A DNA stretch of 64,000 nt from Micropterix aruncella (Eukaryota > Arthropoda > Insecta > Lepidoptera > Micropterigidae). Within the stretch, counting starts at the first letter, position 1; each line of letters opens with the position of its first letter. A program made the position numbers and the translations under genes. The notes below the pieces were generated by a model, which was given only the letters and a program-made list of their open reading frames with translations, was not told the origin of the DNA and did no database searches. Shown piece by piece: positions 4,889 through 59,510 of the stretch. The stretch lies in NCBI GenBank assembly GCA_944548615.1, contig OX155967.1:590201-654200 (forward strand). The letters run 5' to 3'.

Positions 4889-5329
4889 TTTCTTATTAGT
4901 ACAAGGAAAAAAATCCTAGGTTATTACTTATTGTCCCTATTTCGCCAATCAATATATTATATTAACTTATTAATTGTTTTCCAGATAAGCAATATCAGGA
5001 AGCGGCTGACCTTTACACTAAGGCGATCGAGTTAAACCCACTTAATGCTGTCTGTTATGGGAACCAAAGTTTTTCATCGCATATATTGGAGAACTATGGG
5101 GATGAGCAGGTCATCAAACTGGATAAATATTATTGGAAGGCTCACTACAGGCGTGCAGTCGCCTACATGGCCCTCGGCAAATTCAAAGAGGCTCAGAAGG
5201 ATCTAAAGCGGGTGGGTGACACTTGTTCTTATTATTTATTTGGATTTTAGTTGGGTGTAAAAGCAATGAATTGTGACCTTTACTGTTTCTTACGTACACT
5301 TTTGCAATTGCATTCTTTTGCCGAACTTT

Positions 5330-32035: not shown

Positions 32036-32394
32036 TTTATTTTATTTATTTATTGATTTCCATAATTCAAATTACAAGTTACAAAAAAAAAACCTTATCC
32101 TAGAACAAAATCATTTTACAATAAGTGTAAGTACATAGTATACCTAGCTTAAAGAGGAAATTCATCTCTTTGATATATTGGTTTACCACTTCAGTAGGTA
32201 TTAACCTGTTTTGAGGTGGTACTAATATCGTTAAATTATTTTGAGGCGGGAGGCAAGTCTTATATGGTACATGTTTTAAAAAAAAATTAAATAACAATAA
32301 TAAAATTATACTAAACTAAATTAAAAATGATGACAATCTACGTAGTTCTATAAAATAATATTTTATTTCTGTATATTAGATATATATATATATA
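32036..32394 (-). mobile_element. 3' end of a minus-strand non-LTR element
   Basis: The left edge is a T-rich ATTTATTTATTG tract, that is an (AATA)n tail on the minus strand. A short minus frame (LVPPQNRLIPTEVV) is shared in sequence with the plus-strand element end at 63780-63840 and with 44789-44996. Only the last few hundred bases of the element remain. Confidence 0.6.
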
Positions 32395-35875: not shown

Positions 35876-36966
35876 AACAATTTCACACAGTCCCGCGGAA
35901 TGAATTATGAATGGCGTAGCTGTCAAACAATAGAATCTATTGTTAGAAAATATAGAGAGCGCCATCTATTGAGAGAAATACGAAGTGGCCATCCCTGGAA
36001 GTACTAATTTCGATTTTTTCGTTTTTTTAGCTGTTCCTTTGGGTTTTTCCTAAATATTTTTTTTTGTAAACCACCCCTGAATCAAGCCAAACAAAATAAA
36101 AGAAACATAATTCAAATCGGTCGTGTCATTTCCGAGATCCTGCGAGACTAACGCACGGCGATTCATTTTTATATATAAGATATATATACACATAAAAATA
36201 TATAAACATATACATATAATATATACCAAATGTCAATATATATTATATAACGTATAAAATACTTTTATAAATAAATTTATACATGTAATATGATAATATA
36301 TAAAATAAAGTTATAATATATATAAGATGATCACACCCGAGTTTTCAACAATTTCTCGCAGTCTTCCCTAGATTTATTAAAAAGCCATGTTACAACCACT
36401 CTTCTAATCGTAAGTACGTCGTAAGGTACGTCGGTCGTTTGTACGTCCATTATTAGTTTATTGTAAAACCTCTGAGCTAGAAATATTTATTTATTTATTT
36501 ATTTAAAAATTAATTACTATAAAACATTGTTTTTGGTTATAAAAATAACAGGAACGGAGGCAAAACCTTCATCTTTTGCTTGTTTGATTCTATCACCCAA
36601 CTGGGACTAGCCCGTTCTAGGATGGACAGGACTGTAATTTTACAATAAATTATGTAAAAGTTTTATTAAAATGCTCATAAAACTAAATTGCTCTAAAATA
36701 TGGTCCTCAAACAAAAAAGAAACAATCAAATAGAATGAGACAATCAGAATTGACATAAAACTAAAGTAAAGCGTAAGATAAATCTATATTAAAAAAAAAT
36801 AAAAAAGTCAATAAGTAATATTTAATATATGTTAAGAAATATAAAAAAGAAATATATATACCTAGTCAAAAAAAAAAAAGTTGTACAATTTATTGTCAAA
36901 ACAATATATAACAACAAAATGAATTGGTAATTAGTTGAATGTTAAAATATAGTCAACATACATAGG

Positions 36967-39505
36967 AATTTATGCAAACGGTTAATAAAGAAAACCAAAG
37001 AAGACTACTACAAAAATAAAATTGCTGAAAATAGCAGTGATTCTAAGAAGGTTTGGCAGCTAATCAAGGAAGCAGCTAACATTTCCAATAACATGCACAC
37101 CATCGATAAGTTAGTCATTGAAAATCGAGTAGTCAATGCCCCAGAGAATATGCAAGAAATCGTAAATGCATTTAACACGCACTTTGCCAGTGTAGGTTCA
37201 AAACTGGCACACAAAATATTAGATCGAAAAAAAATCGGCCGTGAGGACAAAAACTTTACTGAAGGGATACCTACTACTGTGTTTTCCCTAACTCCAACAT
37301 CGCCAAATGAAGTTTCTAAAAGCATTAACTCATTAAAACAGTCTCGTTCCTCAGGTATGGATGGTCTAACTAGTGATATTTATAGAATTGGAAAGGATTA
37401 TTTAAGCTCACCGATATCATTTATAATAAATCTAAGTTTTAAACTAGGATTATTTCCAACAAGACTTAAATGCGCAAAAATCGTACCTGTTTTCAAGTGC
37501 GGCGATAAACTCGATGTAAATAATTATAGGCCCATTTCACTACTGTGTACTCTCTCTAAAATCATTGAGAAAGTTGTTAAAAATAGGCTAGTAGAATATC
37601 TGGATATCAATAGTCTTTTATCGTCCAACCAATATGGCTTTAGGCAGGAAATGGGTACGGCTGATGCTATTGCAGAGGCCACGAAAACCATAACAGCGCT
37701 TGTCGACAAGGGAGAGAAATGTCTTGCTATTTTTCTCGACTTATCCAAGGCGTTCGATACTGTATCTCACGATATCCTTTTAAAAAGACTACTGACCATA
37801 GGTGTAAAAGATCAAAATTTGAAATGGTTTGAAAGCTATATATCCGAAAGGACGCAAATCACTTCGATCGCTGATACTTCCAGCGACGTGAAAAGTCTCT
37901 CATACGGCGTGCCACAGGGAAGTGTTTTGGGGCCTATTTTATTCCTTATATACATAAATGACCTCTACAACCTGACGCCCAGTAAAGCTATATCATTTGC
38001 AGATGATACGGTAATCATCTTTAACGGCAGTAGCTGGCAGCATGTTTTCTCAAAGGCCAATAAAGAAATGGACATTGTTAAAGAGTGGCTGGACGACTCA
38101 CTACTCACACTTAATACCGAAAAAACTAAGTACTTAACTTTCAGCATAGATAAGAGAGGACAACCACCAGATGCCAATTCGATAACTATTCATCAATGCA
38201 TGAACCGTCAATGCAATTGTGAGCCATTAAAAAAAGTGCTGTCCTTAAAATACTTGGGCATAGTCGTAGATAATAAGCTGAGATGGGCTGATCATATAGA
38301 CTTATTGTCTTCAAGGATCAGACGTCTGGCATACATATTTAAAGATTTAAGGAATATTCTAGACCCCAAAACATTAAAAACTACCTATTACGCCTTGTGT
38401 CAAAGCATTTTGAGTTACGGGATCATTGGGTGGGGAGGTTGCTCCAAAACAATTATCCATCAAGTAGAGGTAGCACAGAAGCTGATAATTAAAATTATCA
38501 CCCGTAAACCATACAGATACCCGTCAGAAAAACTTTTTGAAGAGTTCAGTGTACTTGAAGTAAGGCAACTTTATTTAAAATTTTGTCTGGTTTTTATTCA
38601 ATTTCAAATTAAGAGAGCGCCCACACAACAAGCACACCGAACAAGGCGATCCGTGGCGGATATGTTAGACGTCCGTCGAACGAAAACATCTTTTGGTCAG
38701 AGGCATCTTATGAGTATAGGCCCCAGGATATACAACGAATTGGATGAGTCGATAAAATTCGTATACAGTAAAGACCAATTTAAAAAACGGTGTCACAGGT
38801 GGCTTCTGAATGAAGGTCGGGATATTAGCCACCAAATATTTGATATTCTTATGTAATTTAATTTAAATAAATTGAATTACTATTATTATTATTTTATTAA
38901 ATCGCTATTCTTGTTTTTCTCTTTTCTTAATTGAATTATATTGAAATATATATTTTAACTTGTAACATGGACATTTTATATATAATTGTATCCTCGGACT
39001 ATTTAAATATGATTCTTTAAATATTTATTGAGATATAATTTTTTCCTTTATTTCGATTTCGATTCATTAATAATATTTTTATATTTTATTGTATTTATTA
39101 CGACATTATATTATTATTATTCAGTTTAATTATTTCACCATTTACTGAATGTTATTTTTCCAGCACACTACAGCTACATTTACATCACACTACACTACAC
39201 TACAGTTACATCACACTACACTCAAATTACAATGTTTATTATTATTAGTTAATTTTTTATATTATTTGATACCTAGCATATCTTTTAAATTAAGTATTCT
39301 AAAGTATGCACAAGCCACTCTACTTGGTACGCTTGCCTTAGTACGGGCCTAGGCCTAGTTAGGCGGCGTTGATTTTAAAAAAATTGGTCTGCGGTGCTTT
39401 CTATTTTGCTATTATTTACATTTAAGCCTATATTGTTAAACTTACAATGTACTGCCATAAAAAAATGTGCTTTTCTTTAATAAATAAATAAATAAATAAA
39501 TAAAA
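36967..39505 (+). mobile_element. 5'-truncated Jockey-superfamily retrotransposon
   Basis: The second segmental copy reads straight through from the equivalent of 36966 to 39506 (at about 55742), so this block is an insertion. It carries one intact reverse-transcriptase frame and 650 bp of 3' UTR ending in (TAAA)n. A short ATACAT direct repeat flanks it. The copy is truncated in the linker before the reverse transcriptase; no endonuclease remains. Confidence 0.92.
36978..38856 (+). CDS. reverse transcriptase of the inserted element (family A)
   Basis: The frame is open from the truncation point; the first ATG (37093) is internal. Linker: EDYYKNKIAENSSDSKKVWQ. Palm motifs: NYRPISLLCTLSKIIEKVVK, IFLDLSKAFDTVSHDILL (motif A), SYGVPQGSVLGPILFLIYIN (motif B), ISFADDTVIIF (catalytic DD), SLKYLGIVVDNKLRW, and thumb YYALCQSILSYGIIGWGG. 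The C-terminal tail includes TSFGQRHLMSIGPRIYNELD. The domain looks undamaged. It is closely related to the minus-strand element at 41806-44740, which is broken. Confidence 0.92.
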
Positions 39506-39713
39506 TAAATACATACTATTTAAAAATATATTAATAACTTGTGCACCTAAGTTTTATTAAACTATAATTTCTAACATTTGATGTATGGTTAGTCTGTCAT
39601 GACTACCCTAAATGTCAAATTCATTTTTATTTCCAAATTGATCAGATTGTAAAATCTCGGCGTAATGAAAGAGTAATGTCTTTGTCCAAATGATGTTTTC
39701 ATCCTGGGTATAA

Positions 39714-40930
39714 TTAGCCTTTTTTTAAACTTGTCTTGTTGGTCTTCGGTTCTGAATTATTCCTAAATTTGAAATTTTGTCCAAAAAAAAGTTGCCTACA
39801 ATTAACGACTTTAGCTTCCACATAAAGTTCGTTGCTGGGATGGCGATATGGTCTGCGGAGAATAATTTTGAGTATAAATTTCTGCGCAACTTGCAATGGC
39901 TCTAGCAGGGTTTTACCACATCCACCCCCATCCAATTATGCCGTAAGTAATAAGCGATTCACATAAAGCATGATAAACAGTTTTTAGCGTTTTGAAATCC
40001 AGAATATTCCTCAGTTCTTTGAAAAGATATCCAAGAATTCGTACCTTTGTAGCCACGTAATGTATATGAGTGTCCCAACGTAGGAAGCAATCTAGAGTGA
40101 TGCCTAGGTATTTCCAAGATATTTCTCTTTGCAGAGGCTGACAGTTGCAAGACTCTACGCGATCGTGTTTGTGTACTACAATAGTTTTATTTTCAGTGGG
40201 TTGACCCCTAATATTTATACCAAATGACATGTATTTGGTTTTGCCAACATTAATCGTTAACATAAAGTTTCCTAGCCAATTAAATGTGTAATCCCAGTTT
40301 GAACCCTTGAATAGTATAACAGTGTCATCGGCATATGTGATGATTTTACCTACTGGTAACTGGCATAGCTCGTTTATGTAGACGAGGAATAAAATAGGTC
40401 CCAGAACACTGCCCTGTGGGACACCATACGTGAGATTCTGGCTTTCACTCTGGCGGCCCTGGATGGTGACACGTTGTACCCTGTTGGATAGATAACTATG
40501 AAACAATTTAAGACTTGTATAGTTTGCACAATAATATATTATGTGGAACGGAGTCAAAAGCCTTTGCGAGATCAAGGAAAACTCCTAGACACTTATCTCC
40601 TTTATCAACCGTTTCTACAATAAATTCTGTTAAGGCAGTTATAGCGTCTGTTGTGCTTAGACCTTCCCTAAAGCCGAACTGATTGAGAGTATTTTATTTT
40701 CAGTTAAAAAATTATAGTCTCGCCTTTGCAACTTTCTCGAAGATTTTGGAGATCGTGTTTAAAATATAGATAGGTCGACAATTATTGAGATCATGCTTAT
40801 CTCCCTCTTTATGCATTGGAATTACTTTTGCAATTTTTAATTTGTCTGGAAAGATTCCGCTTCTAAAACTCACATTAATAATAAAAGCAATATTACACGC
40901 TTCTAAAACTCACATTAATAACAAAGGCTG
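39714..40930 (-). pseudogene. decayed Jockey-superfamily reverse transcriptase, segmental copy 1
   Basis: Across several frames one can read FREGLSTTDAITALTEFIVE, then LTYGVPQGSVLGPILFLVYI, IITYADDTVILFKGSN, EISWKYLGITLDCFLRWDTH and VAQKFILKIILRRPYRHPSN. The catalytic YADD is present, but frame breaks occur near 39930, 40575 and 40700. Copy 2 (55980-57200) shares these breaks, so the decay predates the segmental duplication. Confidence 0.88.
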
Positions 40931-40987
40931 GCTGAGATAGGTTCCAGCTAGTTTAAATAAGCATGTCCCAACCCCGTCCCGTTAGGT

Positions 40988-41314
40988 AGGTACATGGACA
41001 CAGGTGACGAGATAACCCTTTTGTGTGAACTGGTGGTTACAATCCGCACAAAAAACCTTCGATTTGAGATGAACTGAATTTAGGTGTCTCGTTAAATCTC
41101 CTCGCAGTCCAAAGTGGCGATTACATTTCTTGCAAATAAAAGGCTTTAGCTTTCGGTGAATTGTATTAATATGCCTGATTAGATGTCCTTTTTGCGTGGA
41201 CGCATGGTTACATTCCGCACAAGTAAATGTTGTTTTCAGGTGAACTGAGTGTATGTGACTCGTTAAACTTGCTTTATATCTATAATGGCGATTGCATTTT
41301 TTACAAAGGAACAG
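40988..41314 (-). pseudogene. C2H2 zinc-finger array fragment, segmental copy 1
   Basis: The minus strand encodes about 108 residues without a stop. Three intact fingers are CKKCNRHYRYKASLTSHIHS-VH, CAECNHASTQKGHLIRHINT-IH and CKKCNRHFGLRGDLTRHLNS-VH, spaced C-x2-C-x12-H-x4-H. A fourth (CADCNHQFTQKGYL) has lost its first histidine. Linkers are LKTTFT and RKLKPFI-like. No start is visible, so it is an exon-sized fragment. C2H2 proteins bind DNA; whether this came from a host gene or was carried by an element cannot be seen. The second copy is at 57340-57664. Confidence 0.88.
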
Positions 41315-41624
41315 AACCGCAGTGGCGGGCAGAGAACCGACGCTCGTTACCGGTCGCGGCTGTGTTCACGTCGCGTAGGTATTTGTTTACTCGGCTAGCG
41401 CTGTGATAAACGCCTGAAAAAAGAAATTTCTAAACGACTCGAAATTAAAACCGCTCGTACTCACGAATCACTCTATGACTCCTCTCAAGATTAACGCTTC
41501 TCAGGTGCAAAGAGATTCCCTTTGATTTGGTTACACAGTTGATACAAATCTCTTCTGATACTCTTTCCTATAGCCAAAAGTTACGGAGCGTCAAATAGCA
41601 CGTACACTATATATGCAATAGGGA

Positions 41625-41810
<186 letters not shown>

Positions 41811-42104
41811 CATGTCTTTGTCCGTACGTCGTGTTCATTTTTTACTCTGGTTGTCTGCATCTATTTCTAGTCTCATGTCCGTGATCCCGAAGTTTAAAAG
41901 ACGCAGTCTTGTTATTCCTCTCGAAGTACATCAAGATCGGTCTTATGTATAGCTGTCGAATGTCTATTACGTTGAAGTCGGGAAACGGAGCGGTCTTCTT
42001 TTATAACCCTAATAAGGGCTTTTTGGGCCTTTATTGTCCAGTATAGGATTGATTAGGCCGCTCCACCCATCCTATTTCTCCGTATGTAAATATTGTTTGC
42101 CCTA

Positions 42105-42976
42105 GTGCGAATTGTTATGGTGTTTATTGCAGATGGCTGCCCTCTCTTATCTATACTGAATGCTAAATATTTCGTTTTATCAATGTTAAGCGTGAGTAAG
42201 GAGACATCAAGCCATTTCTTAATAGTATCCATATCTGCATTTGCCTTAGTAAATACACGCTGCCAGCTACTATCATTGAATATTACTACAGTGTCTTCTG
42301 CGAAGGAAATAGCTTTACTTGGTGTTAGATTGTAAAGATCATTTATATATATAAGGAATAATACAGGCCCCAAGACATTGCCCTGTGGAACGCCATATGA
42401 CAAACTTTTCGTTGCGCTGGAGTAGTCTCCAATTGAGGTGATTTGTGTCCGTCCGATTAAATAGCTTTCAAACCACTTATAAGGCGTTTCTCTTATTCCT
42501 ATTGCCATTAACCGATGTAAAAGAATATCATGGGCTACCGTATCGAACGCTTTTGATAAATCAAGACATTTTTCACCTTTGTCAACGAGCTCGACTATTG
42601 TTTTCGTTACTTCCGCAATGGCATCAGAAGTACTCACTTCTTGTCGGAATCCAAATTGTTTGTGGGACAAAAAGTTGTTATTATCCAGATAATCAACTAG
42701 CCTTTTCTTGACTACTTTTTCTATTATTTTTGAGAGAGTATTTAATATCGAGATCGATCGGTAATTATTGAGATCTGTTTTGTCACCGCTTTTAAATACA
42801 GGAACGACTTTTGCACATTTCAGGCACTCTGGAAATATACCTAGTTTAAAGCTTAAGTTTATTATGGACGTTATAGGTGAAGTCAAATGATTACTGGCAC
42901 GTTTATAGACTTCGCTGGTAAGGCCATCAATTCCTGAAGATGTAGATTGCTTAAGTGACGTAATGATTTTAGCCAC
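42105..42976 (-). pseudogene. family A reverse transcriptase, damaged
   Basis: Motifs: NYRSISILNTLSKIIEKVVK, motif A shortened to KCLDLSKAFDTVAHD (about four residues missing before it compared with the element at 36978), SYGVPQGNVLGPVLFLIYIN, and AISFAEDTVVIF where the expected FADD is FAED. Loss of a catalytic aspartate and the small deletion would inactivate the enzyme. The frame runs 70 bases on into family B sequence in a wrong frame. Confidence 0.9.
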
Positions 42977-44365: not shown

Positions 44366-44788
44366 ATTTAGCCTTAAGACAAGTGAGAGGCGTGCCTGAA
44401 AAGTGCATAATTATTGACCAGTTATGAAAAGCAAATAGGGAACAATTTTTAAAATCGAATAATATGCTTAAAATTTGGGTGCCAACAGTATTACATAATA
44501 TGAGTATACTATAGAGCTCGAGGACCTTAATTTGACTTTCCAACATGGTTCTAATTGATTCAGTATAAATATTAATTAAATAATGTAAAATAATTATCGC
44601 GATAAGTGGTCTGAAATATAATACAGTATCAGATATCCAAATATAAACTATAAATGCAACGCAAATTTCAAGATGAATTATAATCACTGAACAAATTAAA
44701 ATATCCATATAGAAAAATAAAATAAAAATAATCATAAAATAGAGAAAAATAATCCAATTTTACATATTAAGAATATATTTAACCACTT
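44366..44788. other. AT-rich 5' region of family A element
   Basis: No coding signal. Probably the 5' UTR of the minus-strand element, boundary near 44740 uncertain. Confidence 0.4.
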
Positions 44789-45289
44789 TGGTTTACCACT
44801 TCAGTAGGTACTAACCTATTTTGAGGTGGTACTAATATCGTTAAATTATTTTGAGGCGAGAGGGCAAGTCTTATATGGTACATGTTTTTTTAAAAAATAA
44901 ATAACATTAATAAAATTATATTAAACTAAATTAAAAATGATGACAATCTACGTAGTTCTATAAAATAAAATTTTATTTCTATATATTAGATATATATACA
45001 CATATAAATATATAAACATATACATAACTTATATAAATAAATTCATACATGTAATATGATAATATATAAAATAAAGTTATAATATATATAAGATGATCAC
45101 ACCCGAGTCCTCAACAATTTCTCGCAGTCTTCCCTAGATTTATTAAAAATCCATGTTACAACCACTCTTCTAATCGTAAGTACGTCGTAAGGTACGTCGG
45201 TCGTTTGTACGTCCATTATTAGTTTATTGTAAAACCTCTGAGCTAGAAATATTTATTTATTTATTTATTTAAGAATTAATTACTATTAA

Positions 45290-45350
45290 GACGCGGCCTG
45301 ACCGCAATAAATAATCAGAAACATCACAAAATAGTACAATTTTTGTCCGT
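45290..45350. repeat. left terminal inverted repeat of TTAA element
   Basis: Pairs with 55271-55317 with a few substitutions and an insertion of about ten bases. GC-rich first 17 bases, then AT-rich. Confidence 0.88.
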
Positions 45351-46023
45351 TTGGAATGCTACTGCGCGCAACGGGCAATCGCTGCGCGGCCGCAGGCCGG
45401 CGCCTGGGAGCTCGGGAAACATCATCATTTATAAAACGCATAGATAGGACCTTATGCACATACATATATTCGTCCCATAATTGCAGAACTAGCCTAACTC
45501 GATTTATTCAAATTTGTCAGGAGAGCACTTTTAAACTTTATTCTCCTTCTCTATTCTTCTATTTTCTTTTTATTTTTAATATGAATAATTCTTAAGTGTT
45601 GATTTTTTTATAGTTTGAATAGTTTATTAAAAGCTTTATTTTTATGAAATTTAATATGCAAAATGTTTATTTTAAATAGCATTTTGGGTAGTTAGGATAA
45701 TTCTGCTTTATTATAACTGATATCAGTACTATCTTATCTGTTGTTCTGCACAGAAATAGAAATGATTTTAGATGAAATTTTCAAATAACAGCTATCCTAC
45801 CTCATCATTCATTCTGCTTATAGAAAATTTATCTATTGAAAATATTTTTTTGTTGATTTCTCAGTTAGGATAATATCGAATTATGATAAATTATAAAAAA
45901 AATGCTATATAAAAAATATTATTGTTTAAAATATTACACATTCGAATTCTTAAATAATATTCTGTATTTAAATGATATATAAAACATTTACTAATAAAGA
46001 TAAAAGCCTAAATAGTATTTTTT

Positions 46024-47330
46024 TCATTCACTTTCATCGGTTTCGTTATGCGCTTCCAGAGATGTGGTATGTAGTCCTTCATAGAATGTATGATATTCAG
46101 CAGGAATTATCTTTTCCCGGCAAAGATACATCAAATCGGCTAGTTTGTCTTTTGATACCCGGTAAAGCCGTCATTTTTAATTGCTTCAATTGCGCATCTG
46201 TTAATTTCTGGATCGGCCTCCGACAACGTTCTACTGTGTTAACTTTGATAGCGTTATAGACATGTTCCAGATCATAGTTTATTTGTATTTTGTTTGGGTT
46301 TTCTGGATTTATCTTCAGCTGTTTTATTTTATTCCAGGATACTTTACATCCATTTTCATCTTTGTCCCAGTTTTTTATTGTGTTTTTTAACAAATCTTTC
46401 AAGTCAAAGATGTCTTTATTTCCCATTTCCTTTACTTATATATGCTTTTTTCTACAGGCAGTTCTAACAATGGAGTACCATTGGCTAGGCGTGAATACTG
46501 GAATTTTCCTTGCTGCTTTTACAATCACGCTATGGACTGAGTCACCCTCATTTTGTGTGTGTCCCTTTTCTAAAAACACATGACGTATCTTGCAGTTCAT
46601 TGTTGCTGCAAAAAACATAGTTTAGTTTAGTTTATCTGGGCTTTTTCCCGCACTTGGCCTCTTGATTGGGCCGCTGTGCGTGGCTCATGTTTTATTTATG
46701 TTACTCCAGCCAACCCAGGCTGTCCCAGAAGGTTAGCAGCCTGTTTGGGTTGCTACAGGCCTCCGGGACAGATGCTGGAGATTGTAGTATGCACAGAACA
46801 TATACAGGCAGTATATAATCCGGTTCCGGTTTTGTCCAGCGCAGTTATTCGAATAAAATGTGAATTGTGACACGCCTTCCGACACCTTTTGTCGGATGAA
46901 GGACAACACGCAGCTTCCGACTTCGCATGATCCTCTCAGGGCGATAGACTCATGCTACATATAACAGTAGCCTTATTGGGTAGCTCATATATCGTGAAGT
47001 TGTAGACAGGGTACTTTCGCTTGTAGTAAAGCTGAGACGCTTCTGATTTAGGGCATTGGAGTACTTGTTGTAAATCGTACACAGCTGCGCAGAAAGTTTT
47101 GTTTGTTTTTGCCCTTTCCTTGTCGGATTGTTTAATATTTCTGCTGATTTCTTTGTTTTTTATGTGACTTTTATACTGGGGCTTCATATTTGCTTTTTCA
47201 TCCGTGGTACTTGATTCATAATTTAAGCAGAAATCATATTGGTATTTTTTAGGGGTAAAGAACGAGTAGTTGAACTCCGTACAGAAAATTTTCCTGTACA
47301 TAGACATAGTTGACGGTTCTAATTGTTTTT
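46024..47330 (-). pseudogene. second gene of the TTAA element (HTQNEGD family), broken
   Basis: Block 1 (47330-46936): LEPSTMSMYRKIFCTEFNYS, FTPKKYQYDFCLNYESS, a K-rich stretch, and YPVYNFTIYELPNKATVICS. Block 2 (46618-46436): RHVFLEKGHTQNEGDSVHSV and IVKAARKIPVFTPSQWYSIV. Block 3 (46426-46024): FDLKDLLKNTIKNWDKDENG, VSWNKIKQLKINPENPNKIQ, and, after a frame shift, KLADLMYLCREKIIPAEYHT. I recognise the block order as a large uncharacterised family in insects and cnidarians. GHTQNEGDxxHS resembles the acidic third motif of an RNase-H-fold transposase. A 300-bp foreign stretch replaces the middle, including the expected FxxDNxxGQNKN region. Confidence 0.7.
46620..46935. other. foreign stretch inside the second TTAA-element gene
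   Basis: This GC-richer sequence begins AGTTTATCTGGGCTTTTTCC and does not continue the protein on either side. Probably an inserted repeat; I see no terminal repeat or target duplication. Confidence 0.5.
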
Positions 47331-48189
47331 GCTCACAATCTTGTATAAATAATTACCGTGCCTCTTTTTTGTTTGTTTAACGATCATCGAAAGGACAGTC
47401 ACTCCATTAGTGTCGCACTTGAATTACAGCGGTTTTTAAGGGGCACCTTCCTAGTATGGATATATTATGAGTTAAAAATATCACATAAGGTGACTATTAG
47501 TGCCAAAAGATTATCTTCTAGCCCGGGCATCAAAAAAGACTTGAAAAAGACTGTTAACACAATGTACAAGACAGTAGAAGGATCAGTAAAATAACAGCAA
47601 AAGAGTCAGTTTTTCTTTATTGTATACGTTAATATGACTCATTGAGGAGGAAATAACGGTATCCATTGCCTTAAACGCTTACACTTAATTTGTGATGCAT
47701 ATTTAAAAACAACAATATATAAAATCCGTAAACTAAGAATTTTAAGCAATATGAAGTCACACGAAATCACTGATCAATGAGAGCGTTTAAGTCCGGATAG
47801 GAAACCTCCAAAAACCGACCGGCGATACCGTAATTATAATATTATCTTTAATAATATCCTAATTTACATAAGTATGTCATAAGCATATACATAAAAAAAT
47901 ATGATGAATTAGATGAAAAACACCGTCCAGAAATCAGCTTGGCCATGCACCCCGCCCGAGTGGTATGTCGGTAGGTATATGGAAAAAATGTGAAAAAAGA
48001 ATGTTAAAAACAGAAAATATCGAAAATACATATTGCGGCGCCGGTTAAGATATTCGTAAGAATTTATAATGTGGTATCTCTCTGTGGCATGAAACGGGAT
48101 TTTCTTTAACCGACTATTCCGGGTAAAAGGCATGTTTGATAGAAATCCACAAGCCGTTGCTTCATCTTAGTTTCCCAAAAACTATTGCC
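47331..48189. other. no further coding recognised
   Basis: The upstream part of the second gene is expected here in minus orientation. Short plus- and minus-strand frames exist but none carries a motif that I recognise. Confidence 0.35.
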
Positions 48190-48263
48190 TATCGTAACAC
48201 TTTTTCGCCTAAAATTCACATACAACTATCGTAGCACTATTCACACATTCACATAGCACTATC

Positions 48264-49268
48264 ATGCACTATTCACATATCACTATTCACACGACAACGT
48301 CCGAAGAGGTCATCTCGGGTCTAGCCGCCCATGGCTTTGAGGCCACATACGTCAAAATGATCCACGGGGGGCGGCGACCCCTTTTTCATGTCGTCCTCCG
48401 GAAGACAGATCGCTGGCGCGAGGTGTTCCAGCTCCCGGACCTACACCACATAAAGGTCACAGTGGAGTCCTGGAGGGGACGAAAGGGCCCCAAACAGTGC
48501 CACCGATGCCAGCGATTCCGCCACAGCAGCCACAACTGTCACCGGCCGCAAGTCTGTGTCTGCTGCGGCGAGGAGCATGCAGCCAAAAACTGTCCGAGAC
48601 CAAAGACAGTCAAAGCAACATGCGGCAACTGCGGGGCGGATCACCCCGCAAACAACAGGAGGTGCCCTGCGTTCATGGCAGAAATCCGCCAGACAACGAG
48701 GCAGCAGCAAGGTGCTCCGCGAGCGGCGGCTGCTGCCCCTCAAGCAGAGCCGCGAACCGCTGCCCCGCGCGCCCCGCGCGCCCAGCGCTCCCAGACCGCC
48801 CCAGCCCCGGAACAGACTCAGTCTCCACGGGCTTCGCCGCGGAAACCGGCAAAACCACAGGCTATGCCTCAGCCTCCCCCCGCTCCACAGCTACAGAAAC
48901 AAAAACCGGTGGCGAGCCGGGAGGCTCCCCTTTCGTGGAGGCAGAAGCCGGCACCGTCGACCGCTTGTCAGCAGCCAGCTACTGCAAAGAAGTCAAATCG
49001 GCAGCGCTCGAAGTGGCCGACGAGAACGCCTCCACAGGAGACGAAGCTGGTCGAGAAGGCGACCCCCCCAACACACCGACCCCAGCCCCAACAGCCCAGC
49101 CAAGAGGCTGTAAACGTAACGGTGGCAGACCTGCTGTCGCTGGTAAGCGAGCTACTTGCCAACCCGGCGGAAGCAGGCTCCATCGTAGCGCGCACCCTAC
49201 AGCGCCTACTGGGGCCGTCGTCCGCCCTACAGTGCACAGCCATGCCTCCTGCATCGGCAGGCCACTAA
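48264..49268 (+). CDS. Jockey-clade ORF1 (gag-like), 5'-truncated
   Basis: The ATG at 48264 lies in the minisatellite, so the first nine or so residues are not element-derived. Element coding starts near 48291 (TSEEVISGLAAHGFEATYVK). A fragment of the pre-knuckle domain (GRRPLFHVVLRKTDRWREVF) is followed by three knuckles: CHRCQRFRHSSHNC, CVCCGEEHAAKNC and CGNCGADHPANNRRC. A long proline/alanine/glutamine-rich tail runs to the stop. This is the nucleic-acid-binding ORF1 of Jockey/X-element type. Base composition is far richer in GC than the surroundings. It overlaps the ORF2 frame, which is also open here. Confidence 0.9.
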   Translation: MHYSHITIHTTTSEEVISGLAAHGFEATYVKMIHGGRRPLFHVVLRKTDRWREVFQLPDLHHIKVTVESWRGRKGPKQCHRCQRFRHSSHNCHRPQVCVCCGEEHAAKNCPRPKTVKATCGNCGADHPANNRRCPAFMAEIRQTTRQQQGAPRAAAAAPQAEPRTAAPRAPRAQRSQTAPAPEQTQSPRASPRKPAKPQAMPQPPPAPQLQKQKPVASREAPLSWRQKPAPSTACQQPATAKKSNRQRSKWPTRTPPQETKLVEKATPPTHRPQPQQPSQEAVNVTVADLLSLVSELLANPAEAGSIVARTLQRLLGPSSALQCTAMPPASAGH

Positions 49269-52024
49269 GAATAGTGCATTGGAATGCGGATGGCATCAAA
49301 AGCAAGCTTCCGTCGGTGCGAGCCTTCCTGCAGGAACAGCAGGTCGACGTCCTCCTCGTATCGGAGACAAAGCTCCTGAAATTCGTCTCGGTGCGCATAC
49401 CCAACTACATCGCGTACCGGACGGACAACGTGACGACAGAAGGTCGCGCGTACAGGGGCACCGCCGTCTTCGTGAGGAGGACGATGCTCCACCAACAAAT
49501 CGACGTGCCGCAGCTAGACTCGCTGTACGCAACGGGAATTCAGCTAAGAGCAGGCGGAGTAGACTTGCGTATTTTTGCAGTCTACAAACCGCCCAGCAAC
49601 CGACTGGAGACTGGCGACATCGACAAACTCCTACACCCGACGATACCTACGATCGTAGCCGGCGACCTGAACAGCAAGCATCCGGCGTGGAACTCGACGC
49701 GCGCCAACGTCGATGGCGCGCAATTGCTTAACCACGCCGAGAAAAGAGGCTTCACGGTCGCCGGACCGGAACAACACACACGTGTTCCGAGCACGCCAAC
49801 CCACTCGTCAGAGGTACTCGATGTCGCCCTCCTGCACAACGTGACATTTCCCTACGTGCAGGAAGTCATTTATGAGCTACAGTCGGATCACCTGCCGGTT
49901 CTCTTAGAGCTACAAACCGACGTTGCTACAGCGAGTCACTATAGAGAGCGCCGCCGTATTGACTGGACACGTTACGAAAAGCTGCTTGGTAAGGCAATCC
50001 TAGACTATAAGACACCGGTCACCATCGGAGATATCGAGAGCCGGGTGTCCAACCTTCAGGAGGCCATCAAGACCGCGCTGGAAGCCAGCTCCTCGACGAT
50101 AGAGGCGAAAGCGACACGTCCCCGCCTCCCGCAACGACTGCGAGACAAGCTGCGGGAGAAGCGGCGCTTGCATCGCTTCTGGGCCGAAAATCGGTGTCCG
50201 GAAGCTAAGCGCCGCTTAAACAAAGCGAACGTTAGCTTGCAAGAGGAACTGCAGACGTACGCAGCCGAGTCGTGGGAGGAATTCCTCGACTCGATAGGCG
50301 ACGACATGCCATCTATATACAGGCTGAATCGTCGCCTGCTGAGTACGGCTGAACCAGCGCGGCCACTACTGGATTCGACCGGGAACCTCCACTATGTCGC
50401 CGACGACAGAGCGACTCTCTTCGCGGACCACCTGGAGAAGACCTTCGTCCCGCACGACATAGAAGACCAGGAGCACTCCAAGGTGGTCCACGAGCACCTA
50501 GCTGCGGAGGAGGAATCGCCACCGGAGCTTGGCAGAGAGATCCCGCCGATAACTCCGGCTGAGCTCCAGCGTCGAATCCAGCAACTCAAGCTGAAGAAGG
50601 CACCCGGCCCCGACGGCATCAGTAGCGGCGCGCTGAAGAGGCTTCCGCGTCGCCAGCTGCCGGCCCTCGCAGGGCTGCTAAACTCCTGCATCAGACTCGG
50701 TCATTTTCCAGAGAAGTGGAAGACGGCTAAGGTGATAATGCTGCCGAAACCTCACAAAGACCTGCGGCAACCGGGCAACTACCGCCCGATCTCGCTGCTG
50801 CCTACGCTCGCGAAGGTCTTCGAGCGATGCGTGCTGGCGCGACTAACGCCGCACCTCGCCCCGCGCAACGAGCAGTATGGATTCCGTACGGGCCACTCGA
50901 CTACCCTGCAACTCACGCGGGTAGTACATCGCCTGACGGAATCCTACAATAAGCACCAGCATACGGCAGCCGTCTTCCTGGACGTCGAAAAGGCGTTCGA
51001 CCGAGTCTGGCACGAGGGCCTCCGCTACAAGCTGGCGACACAGACCACGGCACCGCGCCTGCTCCGTAACGTGGTGGCTTCCTTCCTCTCCGGAAGAGGG
51101 TTCTTCGTCGCGGTGGAGGGCGAGCAGTCCACAATTCGTCCCATCGCGGCGGGAGTCCCGCAGGGAAGCTGCTTATCGCCGGCGCTATACGGTGTCTACA
51201 CAAATGACATACCGCTCAGCGCCGGCGCGGAGCTGGCGCTATTCGCGGATGACGCTATGTATATGGCAACTTCAATCAACATCAAGGTCGCGGCCAAGAA
51301 ACTGCAGCAGCAACTAGACCTTATGCCAGAATGGCTAAGGAAATGGCGGATTGTCGTTAACGCGGTTAAGTCCGAAGCGATCATCACCGGCTCACTCAAA
51401 GTTTACCCGGAGCCGGTGAAACTCGGCGGCACCCCGGTACCGTGGAAGAACACGGTCAAGTACCTCGGGGTGCATATCGACCGTCGCCTTAACTTTGCGC
51501 ACCACGCGAAAGCAACAATTGCCGCTTCGAAATCCGCCTTCTACGCGCTGCTGCCCGTTCTCCGTTCGGCCGCGATCCCGGCGAAGACACGTCTGCTGAT
51601 GCTGAAGATGTACGTGAGGACGAAACTCGCGTACGCGGCACCGGCCTGGTACCACCTCATCTCGGCATCGCAGCGGAGTAACATCCAGCGAGTGCTGAAC
51701 GTGGGGCTAAGAAAAGTGTCGGGAGCCCCTTGGTACGTCCGAAATGCGACTCTGGAACGCGATTTTAGCGAAACAGAGTCCGTGGAGGAACACGTAAAGC
51801 GCCTCGCGCGCGCTATGTACCGCAGGGCCGACACCTCGCCTCACGAGCACATCCGCCAGCTCGCTCCTCTGCACACCAGACCACCAGATGTCCGGAAGCC
51901 GTACCCGCGCAGTCTGCTTGATTAGCGGACCACCAGCGCGGGTATCGCAGCACAGCACCCTTGCCACAAAATATGTCATTACCAACTCCCGTCACAATCC
52001 TTCACGATAAGACTTGTTTTTAAG

Positions 52025-52060
<36 letters not shown>

Positions 52061-52231
52061 AGGTGCCTAAGCACATAACAATGAGTCTTGCCACAGGGCA
52101 CAAAGCCCTGTGACGCCATTCCAGAAAGCCGGGCCAATGGGCCCGGCTCACGTGAAACCCCACGAAAAGGCAAAATGCCTAGTGGAAGATGTCACGGGCC
52201 TCTAGCAAGGCCCGTCGACAGATATTTGATT
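48291..52231 (+). mobile_element. GC-rich Jockey-clade retrotransposon nested in the TTAA element
   Basis: Two overlapping frames (ORF1, ORF2) are followed by a 300-bp 3' UTR that contains an internal run of about 34 A (52025-52058), a structured GC-rich stretch (GCCGGGCCAATGGGCCCGGC), and a terminal GATATTTGATTTGATT. It is truncated at the 5' end inside ORF1. Its GC content contrasts sharply with its AT-rich host. Confidence 0.92.
49240..51925 (+). CDS. Jockey-clade ORF2 (endonuclease and reverse transcriptase)
   Basis: The frame is open from 48497, but conserved coding begins near 49240 with GRPLRIVHWNADGIKSKLPS. Endonuclease motifs: VLLVSETKLL, FAVYKPPS, IVAGDLNSKHPAWNS and LQSDHLPVLLELQ. 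Reverse transcriptase: KKAPGPDGISSGALK, NYRPISLLPTLAKVFERCVL, FLDVEKAFDRVWHEGL (motif A), AGVPQGSCLSPALYGVYTND (motif B), LALFADDAMYMA (catalytic DD), VKYLGVHIDRRLNFAHH and YVRTKLAYAAPAWYHL. All catalytic residues are present and no stop interrupts it, so the enzyme could be functional although the copy lacks its 5' end. No ATG lies in frame at the domain start; reinitiation from the ORF1 end (ATG at 49242, other frame) is possible. Confidence 0.94.
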
Positions 52232-52399
52232 TGATTCACATAGCACCATACACTATTCACATAGCACATAGCACTATTCACATAGCACATAGCAATACAC
52301 GTAACAGTATTCACATAGCACTATCATACACTATACACATATTATCATGCACTATTGATATTTTTTTATTGCTTATTTTGTGGAGATTTTTTTAAAACT

Positions 52400-54779
52400 C
52401 GGAATAATCTAAAACTCTTGGCTGGATGTTCTTAAATTGTGTCGGCGTATGCGGCGAATTATTTAGTGGTGCTAGCGGTGGTGATTGTGCTGATCGCATT
52501 GGTGATAGAAGTGGTAGCGGTGCCGCTGTTGGTATACTGAAACAGTTGCGTATCGGCATTCCACGCATATGCCTGGAGTCCAATATTTCTGAGAGAATAC
52601 TTTGCATATAAAAGTCGACATTTTTTTTTTCCATTTTTTCTGTCCAGATATCGTCCTCCCTTTCAATGTACTCTGTTTTCAAGTCTTGGCCTTGGCCACC
52701 CCATATTGCAAAAAGACATTTTTGTCTATTTGAGACTTGTATGTCATGAGACTTTTTTATCATATTTGTATATTTGAATTTTGTTTTCTTTAATCGCCTG
52801 TTCTATGCCTTTTTTAAATGCCATTACAGGACACTTAACCTCAACAATTGTATCCTCTCCGATAATTCCGTCCGGTGTTGCTCCAATAAATGCATACTTT
52901 CTGTCAACGAATAGCCCACAGGGTTCAATTATAATTTTTTCTTGCTGCTCTAACTGTTGCAGGGCTAATTTTTCGTTTTCTACACCGTGAGCAATAGATG
53001 CTACGTGCGAAATATTTTCAGAGTATAATACATTTTTTACTAGATTGCCACTACTCGTATTTTGGCGCTTTTTTATGATTTTCCGAAATTAGACGCAGTG
53101 ACCATATTTTTTCGTAGCTCCAACCATTCACTGCAGTCGCGTGAGTGGCAATCTAGTAAAATATTCATTATAGTTACTTCCATAGGACCTTGCACTCCAA
53201 CACCCGTCAGCTTATACATCAATTATCGGTATTCCATCTTTGACTCTTCCCTCAGCGATGGCAGCCTGGCGTTCACGCTCTGCAGCAGCATTCATTTCCT
53301 CTACAGCCGTCGTCTCCCACTCATCGAATACTTTATCTTGCGTTTTAGCAAAGAACCTTTCTGAAAATATAGGTGCATTCATAGATGACGATATCTCTTC
53401 AAATTGCGAATAGGCTATTCCTGAAGATACTATTCCTATTACAGCACCAACATTTGTCTCGACATTTTCAGTACATGCAGGATTGTCAGAGTTAATAAAA
53501 AAAACCAAGCCACACATGTCGCACTTAAATTTAAACTTTGATATTAATCCGATTCTCTTTTCTCCCACAAAACTCAGACATTGAATACCACAGTTAAAAA
53601 GACTGCTGTGTTTTGAAATATCTTTAAGCTTAGTAAAAAAGTACAATATATTTACGATTCCTCCTTCCGTCAACAGATGTGTAGTCATGTTCTTGTTCTG
53701 GTTCAATCCCGTAATATGTTTCACCAGCCGGATTTCTATAAAAAAGGATTTTCTGCTCGAGGAAATTATGAAAAAAAAACATAGAAAGACAAACTGACAG
53801 ATATGATAATTTAAAAATAACGTATACCACCATCCTGACGATAATAGTCAAGGAAAACATGTGCTAGGCAATTACAATAAACCATAGAATACAAGCAGCC
53901 GTCTTTTCGTCAGCCAGCCAAGCCATGATTCAAGTAAATATACGTAAATATATAAAAATATCCGCCAAGTACGGCACCACGTACGGTCTCAACAACTTGC
54001 CGGATTTCTGATTTGAAGTGGTGATCCAACTGGTTCCGATATTTTTGCGAAACAAAAATCACATCACATCACAATCATATTTGTCGTTATTTGCTCATAA
54101 ATACGCCATGGATTGACTAGGCACTTGTCTAGTATGTCCGGTAATACACATAATAGTTCATATCTTCGAAACTACTAAACCGATTTTGATGAATCTTACT
54201 AAATAGACTAAACATAATATGGTATCTCACAAAATGATTGATACTTACTCTCCGTGCACTAGTTCCGCTGAGGTACTCGGTTGGCCAATATCAGTATCAC
54301 TGACTTTGCGCTTCTTTGATCTAAGAGAAATATAAAATGGGTAAATGACAAAAATGCGGTATCATACAATAATTTATATGCAAGTTTTGCATTTACTAGC
54401 GCCAGTCAACCTTTAGTTCTCGGTGTAATGTAGACTATCTATAGCAAATTAAAGTGCAACTAGTCATTTTTTCAATTTAGTATATGCTGAGTAAATTCAC
54501 ATTGATTTTACAATACAATAATCAATAAAAATTGACTTCTTTATACCGTAAACTACACCACATAAATAACTTTAAACCTACCTTAGTACAGGCGAGGCCT
54601 AGTTAGGATGGCTTATTAACATAAATAATGTACTTATTGAAAATGTAATAAAGAATTTTGATTTCATATGATTATGATTTCATATCATGCTTTACTTACC
54701 CAAACGATCTATCATTTTTCTTAGGTCCATGTCGTTTTCTCACGAAGGATTTTTGACGTTTTTTAATTTTATTCCCCAT
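52400..54779 (-). pseudogene. Mutator-like transposase domain + YqaJ nuclease gene, multi-exon, broken
   Basis: Exon 1 (54700-54779): MGNKIKKRQKSFVRKRHGPK, basic, donor GTAAGT. Exon 2 (54249-54320): SKKRKVSDTDIGQPSTS after CTCTTAG, donor GTAAGT. Exon 3 begins at 53735 after TTTTATAG in matching phase with NPAGETYYGIEPEQEHDYTS. It continues with RIGLISKFKFKCDMCGLVFF, a region ending QFEEISSSMNAPIFSERFF, and DGIPIIDV, then a premature stop at 53212-53214, then ADGCW. The rest of the transposase core is deleted. The YqaJ-like part (52400-53150) has CSEWLELRKNMVTASNFGKI, EPCGLFVDRKYAFIGATPDG, IVEVKCPVMAFKKG and FYMQSILSEILDSRHMRGMP. In YqaJ/lambda-exonuclease folds, GATPDG..(I)EVKCP holds the metal-binding residues. 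One base is gained near 53660 and other breaks follow. Confidence 0.82.
53021..53177. repeat. inverted repeat inside the YqaJ region
   Basis: GTATAATACATTTTTTACTAGATTGCC at 53022-53049 (27 bases, given only as position and key run ACTAGATTGCC) pairs with 53147-53177. The second arm appears to be a mis-oriented copy of the first and sits at the deletion junction. Confidence 0.75.
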
Positions 54780-55270
54780 TATTTATTCTGATACAGCGTC
54801 ACTATTTACAATATATGCACTATTTAAAAGCCCAGGTGCACGTCAGCTTGCGATTTTATTTCCATTAAATACGCTGAATAGCGACCAGAATACGCTAATG
54901 CAGAGCGGCCGAGACGACCGTCCCATCCGAGCGTTGCTCGGTGTTTGAAGAGACGACGCGATGCGAGCACCTTATATAACGACAATTTTTGGTGTATTTC
55001 AAAATTTACAAACCAAATTAAAAAAGTGGCTTCAGATACGTTTAGAACTCCAGTCAGGCTATTTATTTCGTAAAAAAAAAAATGTTGTCGCCTTTAAAAA
55101 TTGGGAGAATTTCGATGTCAAAGTTTTTATAGAGGTATTATTTGTGCGTTTTTTTGTTGAAAAACTAGACTACTTTTCAAAATTCTTTTCATTTATAAGT
55201 CTTTTTAGTTTCTTTATCTATCTACAGTATTTTTTTCAGCGTTGTATTTTAACTTTGTCACGTCGCACTA
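54780..55270. other. 5' flank of the Mutator-like/YqaJ gene
   Basis: Probably holds the promoter. A GC-rich patch (GAGCGGCCGAGACGACCGTC) lies at 54905-54924. A 115-codon plus-strand frame at 54961-55308 is phenylalanine-rich and unrecognised, and runs into the terminal repeat, so I do not call it a gene. Confidence 0.35.
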
Positions 55271-55317
55271 GACGTTCAAAAATGGTACTATTTGGTGATT
55301 TGCGATAAGACCGCGCC
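55271..55317. repeat. right terminal inverted repeat of TTAA element
   Basis: Complement begins GGCGCGGTCTTATCGCAAAT, pairing with the left terminus. Confidence 0.88.
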
Positions 55318-55979
55318 TTAAACATTGTTTTTGCTTATAAAAATGGCAAAACCCTAACCTTTTGCTTATTTGATTCTGTCACCCAACTGGGACTAGCCCG
55401 TTCTAGGATGGACAGGACTCTAATTTTACAATAAATTATGTAGAAGTTTATTAAAATGCTCATAAACTAAATTGCTCTAAAATATGGTCCTCAAAAAAAA
55501 GAAACAATCAAATAGAGTGAGACAATCAGAATTGACATAAAACTAAAGTAAAGAGTAAGATAAATCTATAATAAAAAAAAGTCAATAAGTAATATTTAAT
55601 ATAATATGTTAAGAAATATAAAAATTAATATAAAATACCTAGTCAAAAAAAAAAAAGGTAGTACAATTCATTGTCAAAACAATATATATCACCAAAATGA
55701 ATTGGTAATTAGTTGAATGTTAAAATATAGTCAACATACATATATATATACTATTTAAAAATATATTAATAACTTGTGCACCTAACTTTTATTAAACTAT
55801 AATTTCTAACATTTGATGTATGGTTAGTCTGTCATGACTCGAGAACCATTCCTTTATTTTATTTTTGAATACCCTAAATGTCAAATTCATTTTTATTTCC
55901 ATATTGATCAGATTGTAAAATCTCGGCGTAATGAAAGAGTAATGTCTTTGCCCAAATGATGTTTTCATCCTAGGTATAA

Positions 55980-57200
55980 TTAGCCTTTTTTTAAAACTTG
56001 TCTTGTTGGTCTTCGGTTTTGAATTATTCCTAAATTTGAATTATTGTCCAAAAATAGCTTTAAAGAGGGAAGTTTTTGAAAAAAGTTGCCGACAATCAAG
56101 GACTTTAGCTTCCACATAAAGTTCGTTGCTGGGATGGCGATATGGTCTGCGGAGAATAATTTTGAGTATAAATTTCTGCGCAACTTGCAATGGCTCTAGC
56201 AGGGTTTTACCACATCCACCCCCATCCAATTATGCCGTAAGTAATAAGCGATTCACATAAAGCATGATAAACAGTTTTTAGCGTTTTGAAATCCAGAATA
56301 TTCCTCAGTTCTTTGAAAAGATATCCAAGAATTCGTACCTTTGTAGCCACGTAATGTATATGAGTGTCCCAACGTAGGAAGCAATCTAGAGTGATGCCTA
56401 GGTATTTCTAAGATATTTCTCTTTGCAGAGGCTGACAGTTGCAAGACTCTACGCGATCGTGTTTGTGTATTACAATAGTTTTATTTGCAGTGGGTTGACC
56501 CCTAATATTTATACCAAATGACATGTATTTGGTTTTGCCAGCGTTAACATAAAGTTTCCTGGCCAATTAAATGTGTTATCCCAGTTTGAACCCTTTAATA
56601 GTATAACAGTGTCATCGGCATATGTGATGATTTTACCTACTGGTAACTGGCATAGCTCGTTTATATAGACGAGGAATAAAATAGGTCCCAGAACACTGCC
56701 CTGTGGGACACCATACGTGAGATTCTGGCTTTCACTCTGGCGGCCCTGGATGGTGACACGTTGTACCCTGTTGGATAGATAACTATGAAACAATTTAAGA
56801 CTTGTATAGGTTGCACAATAATATATTATGTGGAACGGAGTCAAAAGCCTTTGCGAGATCAAGGAAAACTCCTAGACACTTATCTCCTTCATCAACCGTT
56901 TCTACAATAAATTCTGTTAAGGCAGTTATAGCGTCTGTTGTGCTTAGACCTTCCCTAAAGCCGAACTGATTGAGAGTATTTTATTTTCAGTTAAAAAATT
57001 ATAGTCTCGCCTTTGCAACTTTCTCGAAGATTTTGGAGATCGTGTTTAAAATATAGATAGGTCGATAATTATTGAGATCATGCTTATCTCCCTCTTTATG
57101 CATTGGAATTACTTTTGCAATTTTTAATTTGTCTGGAAAGATTCCGCTTCTAAAACTCACATTAATAATAAAAGCAATATTACACGCTTCTATAACTCAC
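55980..57200 (-). pseudogene. decayed Jockey-superfamily reverse transcriptase, segmental copy 2
   Basis: Near-identical to 39714-40930, with the same frame breaks plus a few of its own. One is a six-base-scale loss near 56545 that ends the YADD frame early. Catalytic IITYADDTVILLKG is present. A short extra stretch (57265-57335) absent from copy 1 lies just beyond its upstream end. Confidence 0.88.
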
Positions 57201-57339
57201 ATTAATAACAAAGGCTGGCTGAGATAGTTCCAGCTAGTTTAAATAAGCATGTCCCAACCCCGTCGTCCCCCCCGCTGACTAATTTTTAAGGTTGCCGATT
57301 ACTTTCTTAACTTCGTCTATATTTGTAGGCGTTAGGTAG

Positions 57340-57664
57340 GTACATGGACACAGGGGACGAGATAACCCATTTGTGTGAACGGGTGGTTACAATCCGCACA
57401 AAAAACCTTCGATTTGAGATGAACTGAATTTAGGTGTCTCGTTAAATCTCCTCGCAGTCCAAAGTGGCGATTACATTTCTTGCAAATAAAAGGCTTCAGC
57501 TTTCGGTGAATTGTATTAATATACCTGATTAGATGTCCTTTTTGCGTGGACGCATGGTTACATTCCGCACAAGTACATGTTGTTTTCAGGTGAACTGAGT
57601 TTATGTGACTCGTTAAACTTGCTTTATATCTATAATGGCGATTGCATTTTTTACAAAGGAACAG
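57340..57664 (-). pseudogene. C2H2 zinc-finger array fragment, segmental copy 2
   Basis: Same three intact fingers and degraded fourth finger as 40988-41314, with a handful of substitutions. The frame remains open, and cysteine and histidine ligands are conserved between copies. Confidence 0.87.
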
Positions 57665-57972
57665 AACCGCAGTGGCGGGCAGAGAACCGACGCTCGTTAC
57701 CGGTCGCGGCTGTGTGCACGTCGGGTAGGTATTTGTTTACTCGGCTAGCGCTGTGATAAACGCCTGAAAAAAGAAATTTCTAAACGACTCGAAATTAAAA
57801 CCGCTCGTACTCACGAATCACTCTATGACTCCTCTCAAGATTAACGCTTCTCAGGTGCGAAGAGATTCCCTTTGATTTGGTTACACAGTTGATACAAATC
57901 TCTTCTGATACTCTTTCCTATAGCCAAAAGTTACGGAGCGTCAAATAGCACGTACACTATATATGCAATAGG

Positions 57973-59510
<1,538 letters not shown>

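What the first reader, a model, noticed from the sequence alone, without database searches (positions are those of the whole stretch)
45290..55317. TTAA-flanked 10-kb transposon combining a Mutator-like/YqaJ gene with an uncharacterised HTQNEGD-type gene
Seen directly: imperfect 50-bp terminal inverted repeats, TTAA on both sides, an empty site in the sister copy of the segment (near 36515), and two minus-strand gene relics. One relic joins a Mutator-like transposase region (SMNAPIFSE, DGIPIIDV-ADGCW) to a YqaJ-type nuclease with GATPDG and VEVKCP. The other belongs to a large unnamed family with CxxC-like and GHTQNEGDxxHS motifs. Known: TTAA targets occur in piggyBac and Kolobok; neither is expected to carry both proteins as far as I recall. 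Inference: the two proteins may be a paired transposase and end-processing nuclease of one element family. The second family is common in insect and cnidarian genomes without an assigned function, and this element would explain it as mobile.
Basis: partly seen in the sequence, partly recalled or inferred. Interest (0 to 1): 0.88.

Follow-up and report, generated by a model that had tools for sequence, protein, structure and literature searches.

The report
Kolobok transposon carrying a dead second transposon
The stretch is a damaged copy of a recently active insect jumping gene of the Kolobok kind that carries a broken piece of a different jumping gene as a passenger; the two genes do not look like partners.

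Summary
A 10,036-bp element (45286-55321, both TTAA included) has imperfect inverted ends, TTAA on both sides and an empty sister site. Of 39 other scored copies of its left end I fetched 20: all 20 have both ends in unrelated flanks, 18 of 20 with TTAA on both sides.

The pairing idea fails. The Mutator-like/YqaJ gene with TTAA and RR/YY termini matches the published KolobokE lineage (transposase with a lambda-exonuclease-like nuclease downstream). Two copies read in full have an open 869-aa frame. Five further copies with open frames were read at the far end: 5 of 5 have no DUF7869 match.

The HTQNEGD gene is DUF7869 (PF25273). Subfamily S1 is a single-gene transposon with other inverted ends and 4-bp duplications that are not TTAA. 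Its terminus recurs inside the window element, about 180 bp from the left TTAA. The same DUF7869 frame breaks recur in 19 of 20 copies: it was dead before the family spread, a nested passenger.

DUF7869 is very probably itself a transposase: its model has an RNase-H core with three conserved aspartates, and in bacteria the gene lies between inverted repeats. It is probably the Sola superfamily (recalled; no Sola sequence could be compared).

The parts
45286..55321 (.). KolobokE-type transposon copy including both TTAA
   Evidence: 20 of 20 fetched genome copies have the same two ends; 18 of 20 have TTAA on both sides
45290..45335 (+). left terminal inverted repeat, begins GA
55272..55317 (-). 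right terminal inverted repeat, begins GG on the minus strand
45471..45539 (+). terminus of a nested DUF7869 transposon, inside the Kolobok element
   Evidence: 80% identical over 60 alignment columns to the terminus of the single-gene DUF7869 element S1, in the matching orientation
46027..47373 (-). DUF7869 (HTQNEGD) transposase relic, N-terminal part lost, frames broken
   Evidence: tblastn with the S1 protein in four pieces; the same breaks in 19 of 20 copies
46619..46789 (.). about 170 bp of foreign DNA interrupting the DUF7869 relic, present at the same place in the other copies that carry the relic
48292..52233 (+). nested non-LTR retrotransposon with a 1194-codon open frame (endonuclease and reverse transcriptase)
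   Evidence: absent from this place in copy L023; Pfam RVT_1 E=2.5e-35. Borders approximate
52392..53863 (-). Kolobok transposase-YqaJ gene relic; about residues 232-604 of the intact 869-aa frame are deleted at 53143-53168
   Evidence: Pfam; alignment to L053; residue numbers
36520..36523 (+). empty target site in the sister segment (TAAA)

Best explanation
The stretch is a non-autonomous copy of a Kolobok DNA transposon of the KolobokE kind. The family's 869-aa protein, open in other copies, inserts at TTAA with its DDE transposase domain and carries a lambda-exonuclease-like (YqaJ) nuclease on its C-terminal side. The damaged copies were probably moved in trans by that protein. Before the family amplified, a DUF7869 transposon inserted about 180 bp from one Kolobok end, decayed there and was carried along as a dead passenger. 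DUF7869 is the RNase-H-fold transposase of separate elements with 4-bp duplications, most likely the Sola superfamily. Shown: ends, TTAA, copy structure, open Kolobok frames, shared lesions in DUF7869, independent single-gene DUF7869 elements, RNase-H core in a predicted model. Inferred: movement in trans, order of events, nesting as the origin of the DUF7869 piece, the name Sola.
For: TTAA and both ends in 20 of 20 fetched copies, TTAA on both sides in 18. Termini begin with RR (GA and GG). Open 869-aa frames in L052 and L053 with Mutator and YqaJ domains and with IDVYADG, a CCHC finger, DGDSATY, CRNH, ERFNS and PDG..VEVKCP. KolobokE described with these features (PMC9587614, passages). Five of five further copies with open frames have the same left end and no DUF7869 match. 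DUF7869 breaks at the same places in 19 of 20 copies, the window and L053 with L059. S1: 3.8 kb, 99.8% identical between two loci, one 927-aa frame, no Kolobok match, own ends, identical 4-bp repeats in 5 of 6 copies. S1 terminus inside the window element. None of 78 DUF7869 matches within 12 kb of any of 70 Kolobok matches.
Against: The upstream terminus of the nested element was not found, and no Kolobok copy without the DUF7869 remnant was found, so no bare site proves the nesting. The 4 bp outside the nested terminus (TATT) do not fit the A..T pattern of the S1 duplications. Co-occurrence covers only the scored matches out of more than 3000 candidates for each gene. Only one DUF7869 subfamily (S1) has its ends and duplications settled; for L060 the duplication is open. 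No phylogeny with known KolobokE or Sola sequences could be made.
Confidence: 0.88

Rival explanations
1. A true two-protein transposon: DUF7869 is an accessory or second transposase of this Kolobok lineage, now lost or broken in the copies read.
For: The DUF7869 relic lies inside the TTAA ends in 19 of 20 fetched copies, in the same orientation as the Kolobok gene. L053 with L059 has an open Kolobok frame and a longer DUF7869 relic.
Against: Five of five copies with open Kolobok frames lack any DUF7869 match. The same lesions are shared by the copies. S1 is a DUF7869 element with other ends and duplications and no Kolobok gene.
Confidence: 0.04
2. DUF7869 is a transposase superfamily of its own and not Sola.
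For: No paper in the library holds the word DUF7869. Pfam, NCBIfam and PDB sequence searches give no named transposase above threshold.
Against: Three aspartates, 4-bp duplications and occurrence in bacteria fit what I recall of Sola; the paper is not held.
Confidence: 0.2
3. The TTAA element is a piggyBac or a Mutator (MULE) element.
For: TTAA is shared with piggyBac; Pfam names the domain Mutator-like.
Against: RR/YY termini separate Kolobok from piggyBac (met). The 4-bp TTAA duplication does not fit the longer duplications that I recall for MULEs.
Confidence: 0.02

Closest known systems
KolobokE lineage of the Kolobok superfamily (PMC9587614; abstract and passages seen)
   Different: The family carries a dead DUF7869 piece near one end; the window copy has lost most of its catalytic core
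Sola superfamily (recalled; no sequence compared)
   Same: Three-aspartate transposase, 4-bp duplications, members in bacteria and animals
   Different: Not compared directly; the window holds only a broken piece
piggyBac
   Same: TTAA target
   Different: Termini are RR/YY here; the transposase is Mutator-like (PF20700) with a fused nuclease

Membership tests
Kolobok superfamily | TTAA target duplication | tested here: met
   18 of 20 fetched copies with TTAA on both sides; L021 and L025 have a changed right copy
Kolobok superfamily | 5'-RR and YY-3' termini | tested here: met
   GA and, on the other strand, GG next to TTAA
Kolobok superfamily | DDE transposase with C/DxxH between second D and E | tested here: met
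   IDVYADG 214, DGDSATY 313, CRNH 338, ERFNS 472 in the open 869-aa frame of L053; by motif, no structure made of this protein
[quoted passage not shown]
   YqaJ E=6.7e-15 at 609-759 after Mutator at 66-427 in L053; PDG 694, VEVKCP 704
KolobokE lineage | CCHC zinc finger downstream of the first D | tested here: met
   CVIC...H.C at 258
KolobokE lineage | clusters with known KolobokE transposases in a tree | not testable with these tools
   no named KolobokE sequence on hand
Sola superfamily (for DUF7869) | transposase with three aspartates | tested here: met
   D267, D344 and D385 invariant in 38 of 38 and on strand 1, after strand 4 and on helix 4 of the RNase-H core. E383 is also invariant in these 38, but the bacterial L003 protein lacks it and keeps the aspartate. 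That three aspartates define Sola is recalled
Sola superfamily (for DUF7869) | 4-bp target duplication | tested here: met
   5 of 6 S1 copies (read by eye); in bacteria 3 of 7 loci with inverted repeats (read by eye). Feature recalled
Sola superfamily (for DUF7869) | sequence similarity to Repbase Sola proteins | not testable with these tools
   Sola paper not held, no Sola sequence on hand
piggyBac | termini other than RR/YY | tested here: not met
   RR/YY found; PMC9587614 uses this to separate the two

The most novel reading that the evidence does not exclude
DUF7869 is a transposase superfamily with three aspartates of its own, distinct from Sola, whose function is not yet named in Pfam. 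It is shared between bacterial insertion sequences (Desulfobacterales, Thiomargarita, Legionellales) and a very large set of loci in this insect genome (3256 first-look candidates), and prefers 4-bp A..T sites in both.
Probability: 0.2. Interest if true: 0.5.

Novelty: new member of a known kind. Interest (0 to 1): 0.3.

Why it matters
It removes a false partnership. It also gives Pfam's 'domain of unknown function' DUF7869 a supported role as a transposase with three conserved aspartates, in insects and in bacterial insertion sequences. Insect 'uncharacterized proteins' with GHTQNEGD, and those with Mutator-like plus YqaJ domains, can then be read as likely transposon genes. The genome holds open and nearly identical copies of both kinds, so both can be tested for activity.

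Tried and rejected
Viral contig scans with the Mutator relic and with the DUF7869 alignment found no relatives. Alignment A2 was too variable to scan with. The bacterial L003 protein has no match in the plasmid and phage collections. No PDB sequence match to DUF7869. No paper holds both Kolobok and YqaJ, or DUF7869; KolobokE occurs in one held paper. The Sola paper is not held; passages of three other papers only name Sola or Kolobok or give no usable detail. L050 and L051, another Kolobok subfamily with open frames, are 99.9% identical over the whole 5.9 kb compared, so their ends could not be set by comparison, and two scans for inverted ends found nothing convincing. L060, a second DUF7869 subfamily with one 779-aa frame and no Kolobok match in 4.3 kb, has inverted ends scoring 27 against a shuffle maximum of 20.5, but its duplication was not settled; its Pfam score, 25.6 bits, is just under the cut-off of 26. 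Bacterial loci L009, L010 and L011 showed no inverted repeats above shuffles, and L005 lacks a flank. The 4-bp flanks disagree in 4 of the 7 bacterial loci with inverted repeats (L002, L003, L004, L008). L006 has only a 310-aa DUF7869 frame. Each of five bacterial genomes searched has a single match, so copy number gives no support for mobility there. The upstream terminus of the nested DUF7869 element was not found in L053 with L059 or in L054. Foldseek itself gave weak matches (best E=2.1e-4, TnsB, TM-score 0.22); the integrase and mariner matches come from the second aligner, and many of its rows have rmsd above 10.

Full report
What is there. TTAA lies at 45286-45289 and 55318-55321 and bounds a 10,028-bp element with imperfect inverted ends. 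The sister copy of the flanking segment is empty at 36520-36523 (TAAA), with homologous flanks on both sides. On the minus strand are a Mutator-like transposase piece (PF20700, E=9e-25), a YqaJ nuclease piece (PF09588, E=1.3e-8) and a DUF7869 relic (PF25273, E=0.0047 and below the cut-off on the broken piece). The read-through relic matches full-length DUF7869 proteins down to E=1.5e-83.

Copies. The window lies in a 1.08-Gb genome of 742 contigs. Most named relatives of the Kolobok protein are from Lepidoptera, so the host is probably a moth or butterfly (inference). The left 101 bp has 136 candidate places, of which 40 were scored, the window's own included; 39 of 40 are 100% identical. I fetched 20 of the 39 others. 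All 20 have both ends in unrelated flanks. All 20 have TTAA on the left; 18 of 20 have it on the right too, L021 has TTGA and L025 AAAA. They are 1,002 to 8,549 bp long, and their long stretches are mostly 97-99% identical to the window copy. Two deletion types recur: about 4.68 kb, lacking the YqaJ part; and about 5.47 kb, lacking the N-terminal part of the Kolobok gene but keeping about 620 bp of core that the window copy has lost. L028 is a 1-kb miniature.

The Kolobok protein. A search with a full-length relative gave 70 matches (67 of 3771 candidates scored); 60 of the 70 show no internal stop. L052 and L053 begin with the window's right end after TTAA and have an open frame of 869 aa. 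Their long aligned stretches are 93-99% identical to the window element. The frame holds IDVYADG, a CCHC finger, DGDSATY, CRNH, ERFNS, and PDG..VEVKCP of the nuclease (Pfam). [quoted passage not shown] These were tested here and met. A tree with known members could not be made. The window copy lacks about residues 232-604, which hold the finger, DGDSATY, CRNH and ERFNS.

No partnership. The far ends of five further copies (L054-L058), whose genes one search lists as open, carry the same left end, with TTAA in 4 of 5 (TTAT in L056). None has a DUF7869 match by tblastn. After the Kolobok part they have 290 bp shared with L053 and then the last 660 bp of the element, which includes the nested terminus. 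L053 with L059 has an open Kolobok frame and a longer, broken DUF7869 relic. In 19 of 20 fetched copies (not L028), in the window and in L053 with L059, the DUF7869 match breaks at the same places: at residues 669/671 of S1, and at 731/728 with an insert of about 170-176 bp. The gene was therefore broken in the founder of the amplified family.

DUF7869 on its own. The genome gives 78 scored DUF7869 matches from 3256 candidates; 54 of 78 show no internal stop. Subfamily S1 (L040, L041) is 3.8 kb, 99.8% identical between two loci, with one 927-aa frame and no Kolobok match. Its ends are CGTCATGTGAATGCAGAACTAGCCTA and CGCTATGCGAATGCAGAACTAGCCTA. Identical 4-bp repeats flank 5 of 6 copies (AATT, ACAT, and ATAT three times, read by eye); L041 has none. 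This terminus recurs at about 45471-45539 in the window, at the matching side of its DUF7869 relic: 80% over 60 columns, E=1.5e-6. None of the 78 matches is within 12 kb of any of the 70 Kolobok matches; that covers only scored matches. In L060, a second subfamily, one 779-aa frame and no Kolobok match were seen in 4.3 kb.

Order of events (inference). A DUF7869 element inserted near one end of a KolobokE element and decayed. The composite and its deletion forms were then amplified, presumably by the open Kolobok protein of other copies. The window copy inserted into one of two sister segments and holds a non-LTR retrotransposon (about 48292-52233) with a long open frame.

Verdict. A real and recently active transposon family of a known kind, carrying a dead passenger of another kind. 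The useful by-product is the evidence that DUF7869 is a transposase family.

Noticed in passing
48292-52233: Non-LTR retrotransposon with a 1194-codon open frame (endonuclease and reverse transcriptase) and an upstream frame with a weak PRE_C2HC match, followed by a poly-A run; apparently young.
   Followed up: partly
L028 (1,002 bp): A miniature copy joining 152 bp of the left end to 850 bp of the right end with TTAA on both sides: a likely starting point of a MITE.
   Followed up: no
30000-64000: Sister segments: repeats at about 32178-32394, 36162-36964 and 39505-42109 recur at 44788-45289 and 55345-59390 at 89-99% identity, broken up by insertions.
   Followed up: no
58153-58792: A 319-nt inverted repeat, 99% complementary, with 2 nt between the arms, within an AT-rich simple repeat.
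   Followed up: no
L001, L002, L003, L004, L006, L007, L008: Bacterial DUF7869 genes between 36-61 bp inverted repeats: insertion sequences that NCBIfam does not name (NCBIfam was asked for L001, L003 and L008 only).
   Followed up: partly
L052, from about position 4974 of the oriented stretch: An intact Kolobok copy is interrupted by reverse-transcriptase-like sequence of a retrotransposon (read by eye).
   Followed up: no
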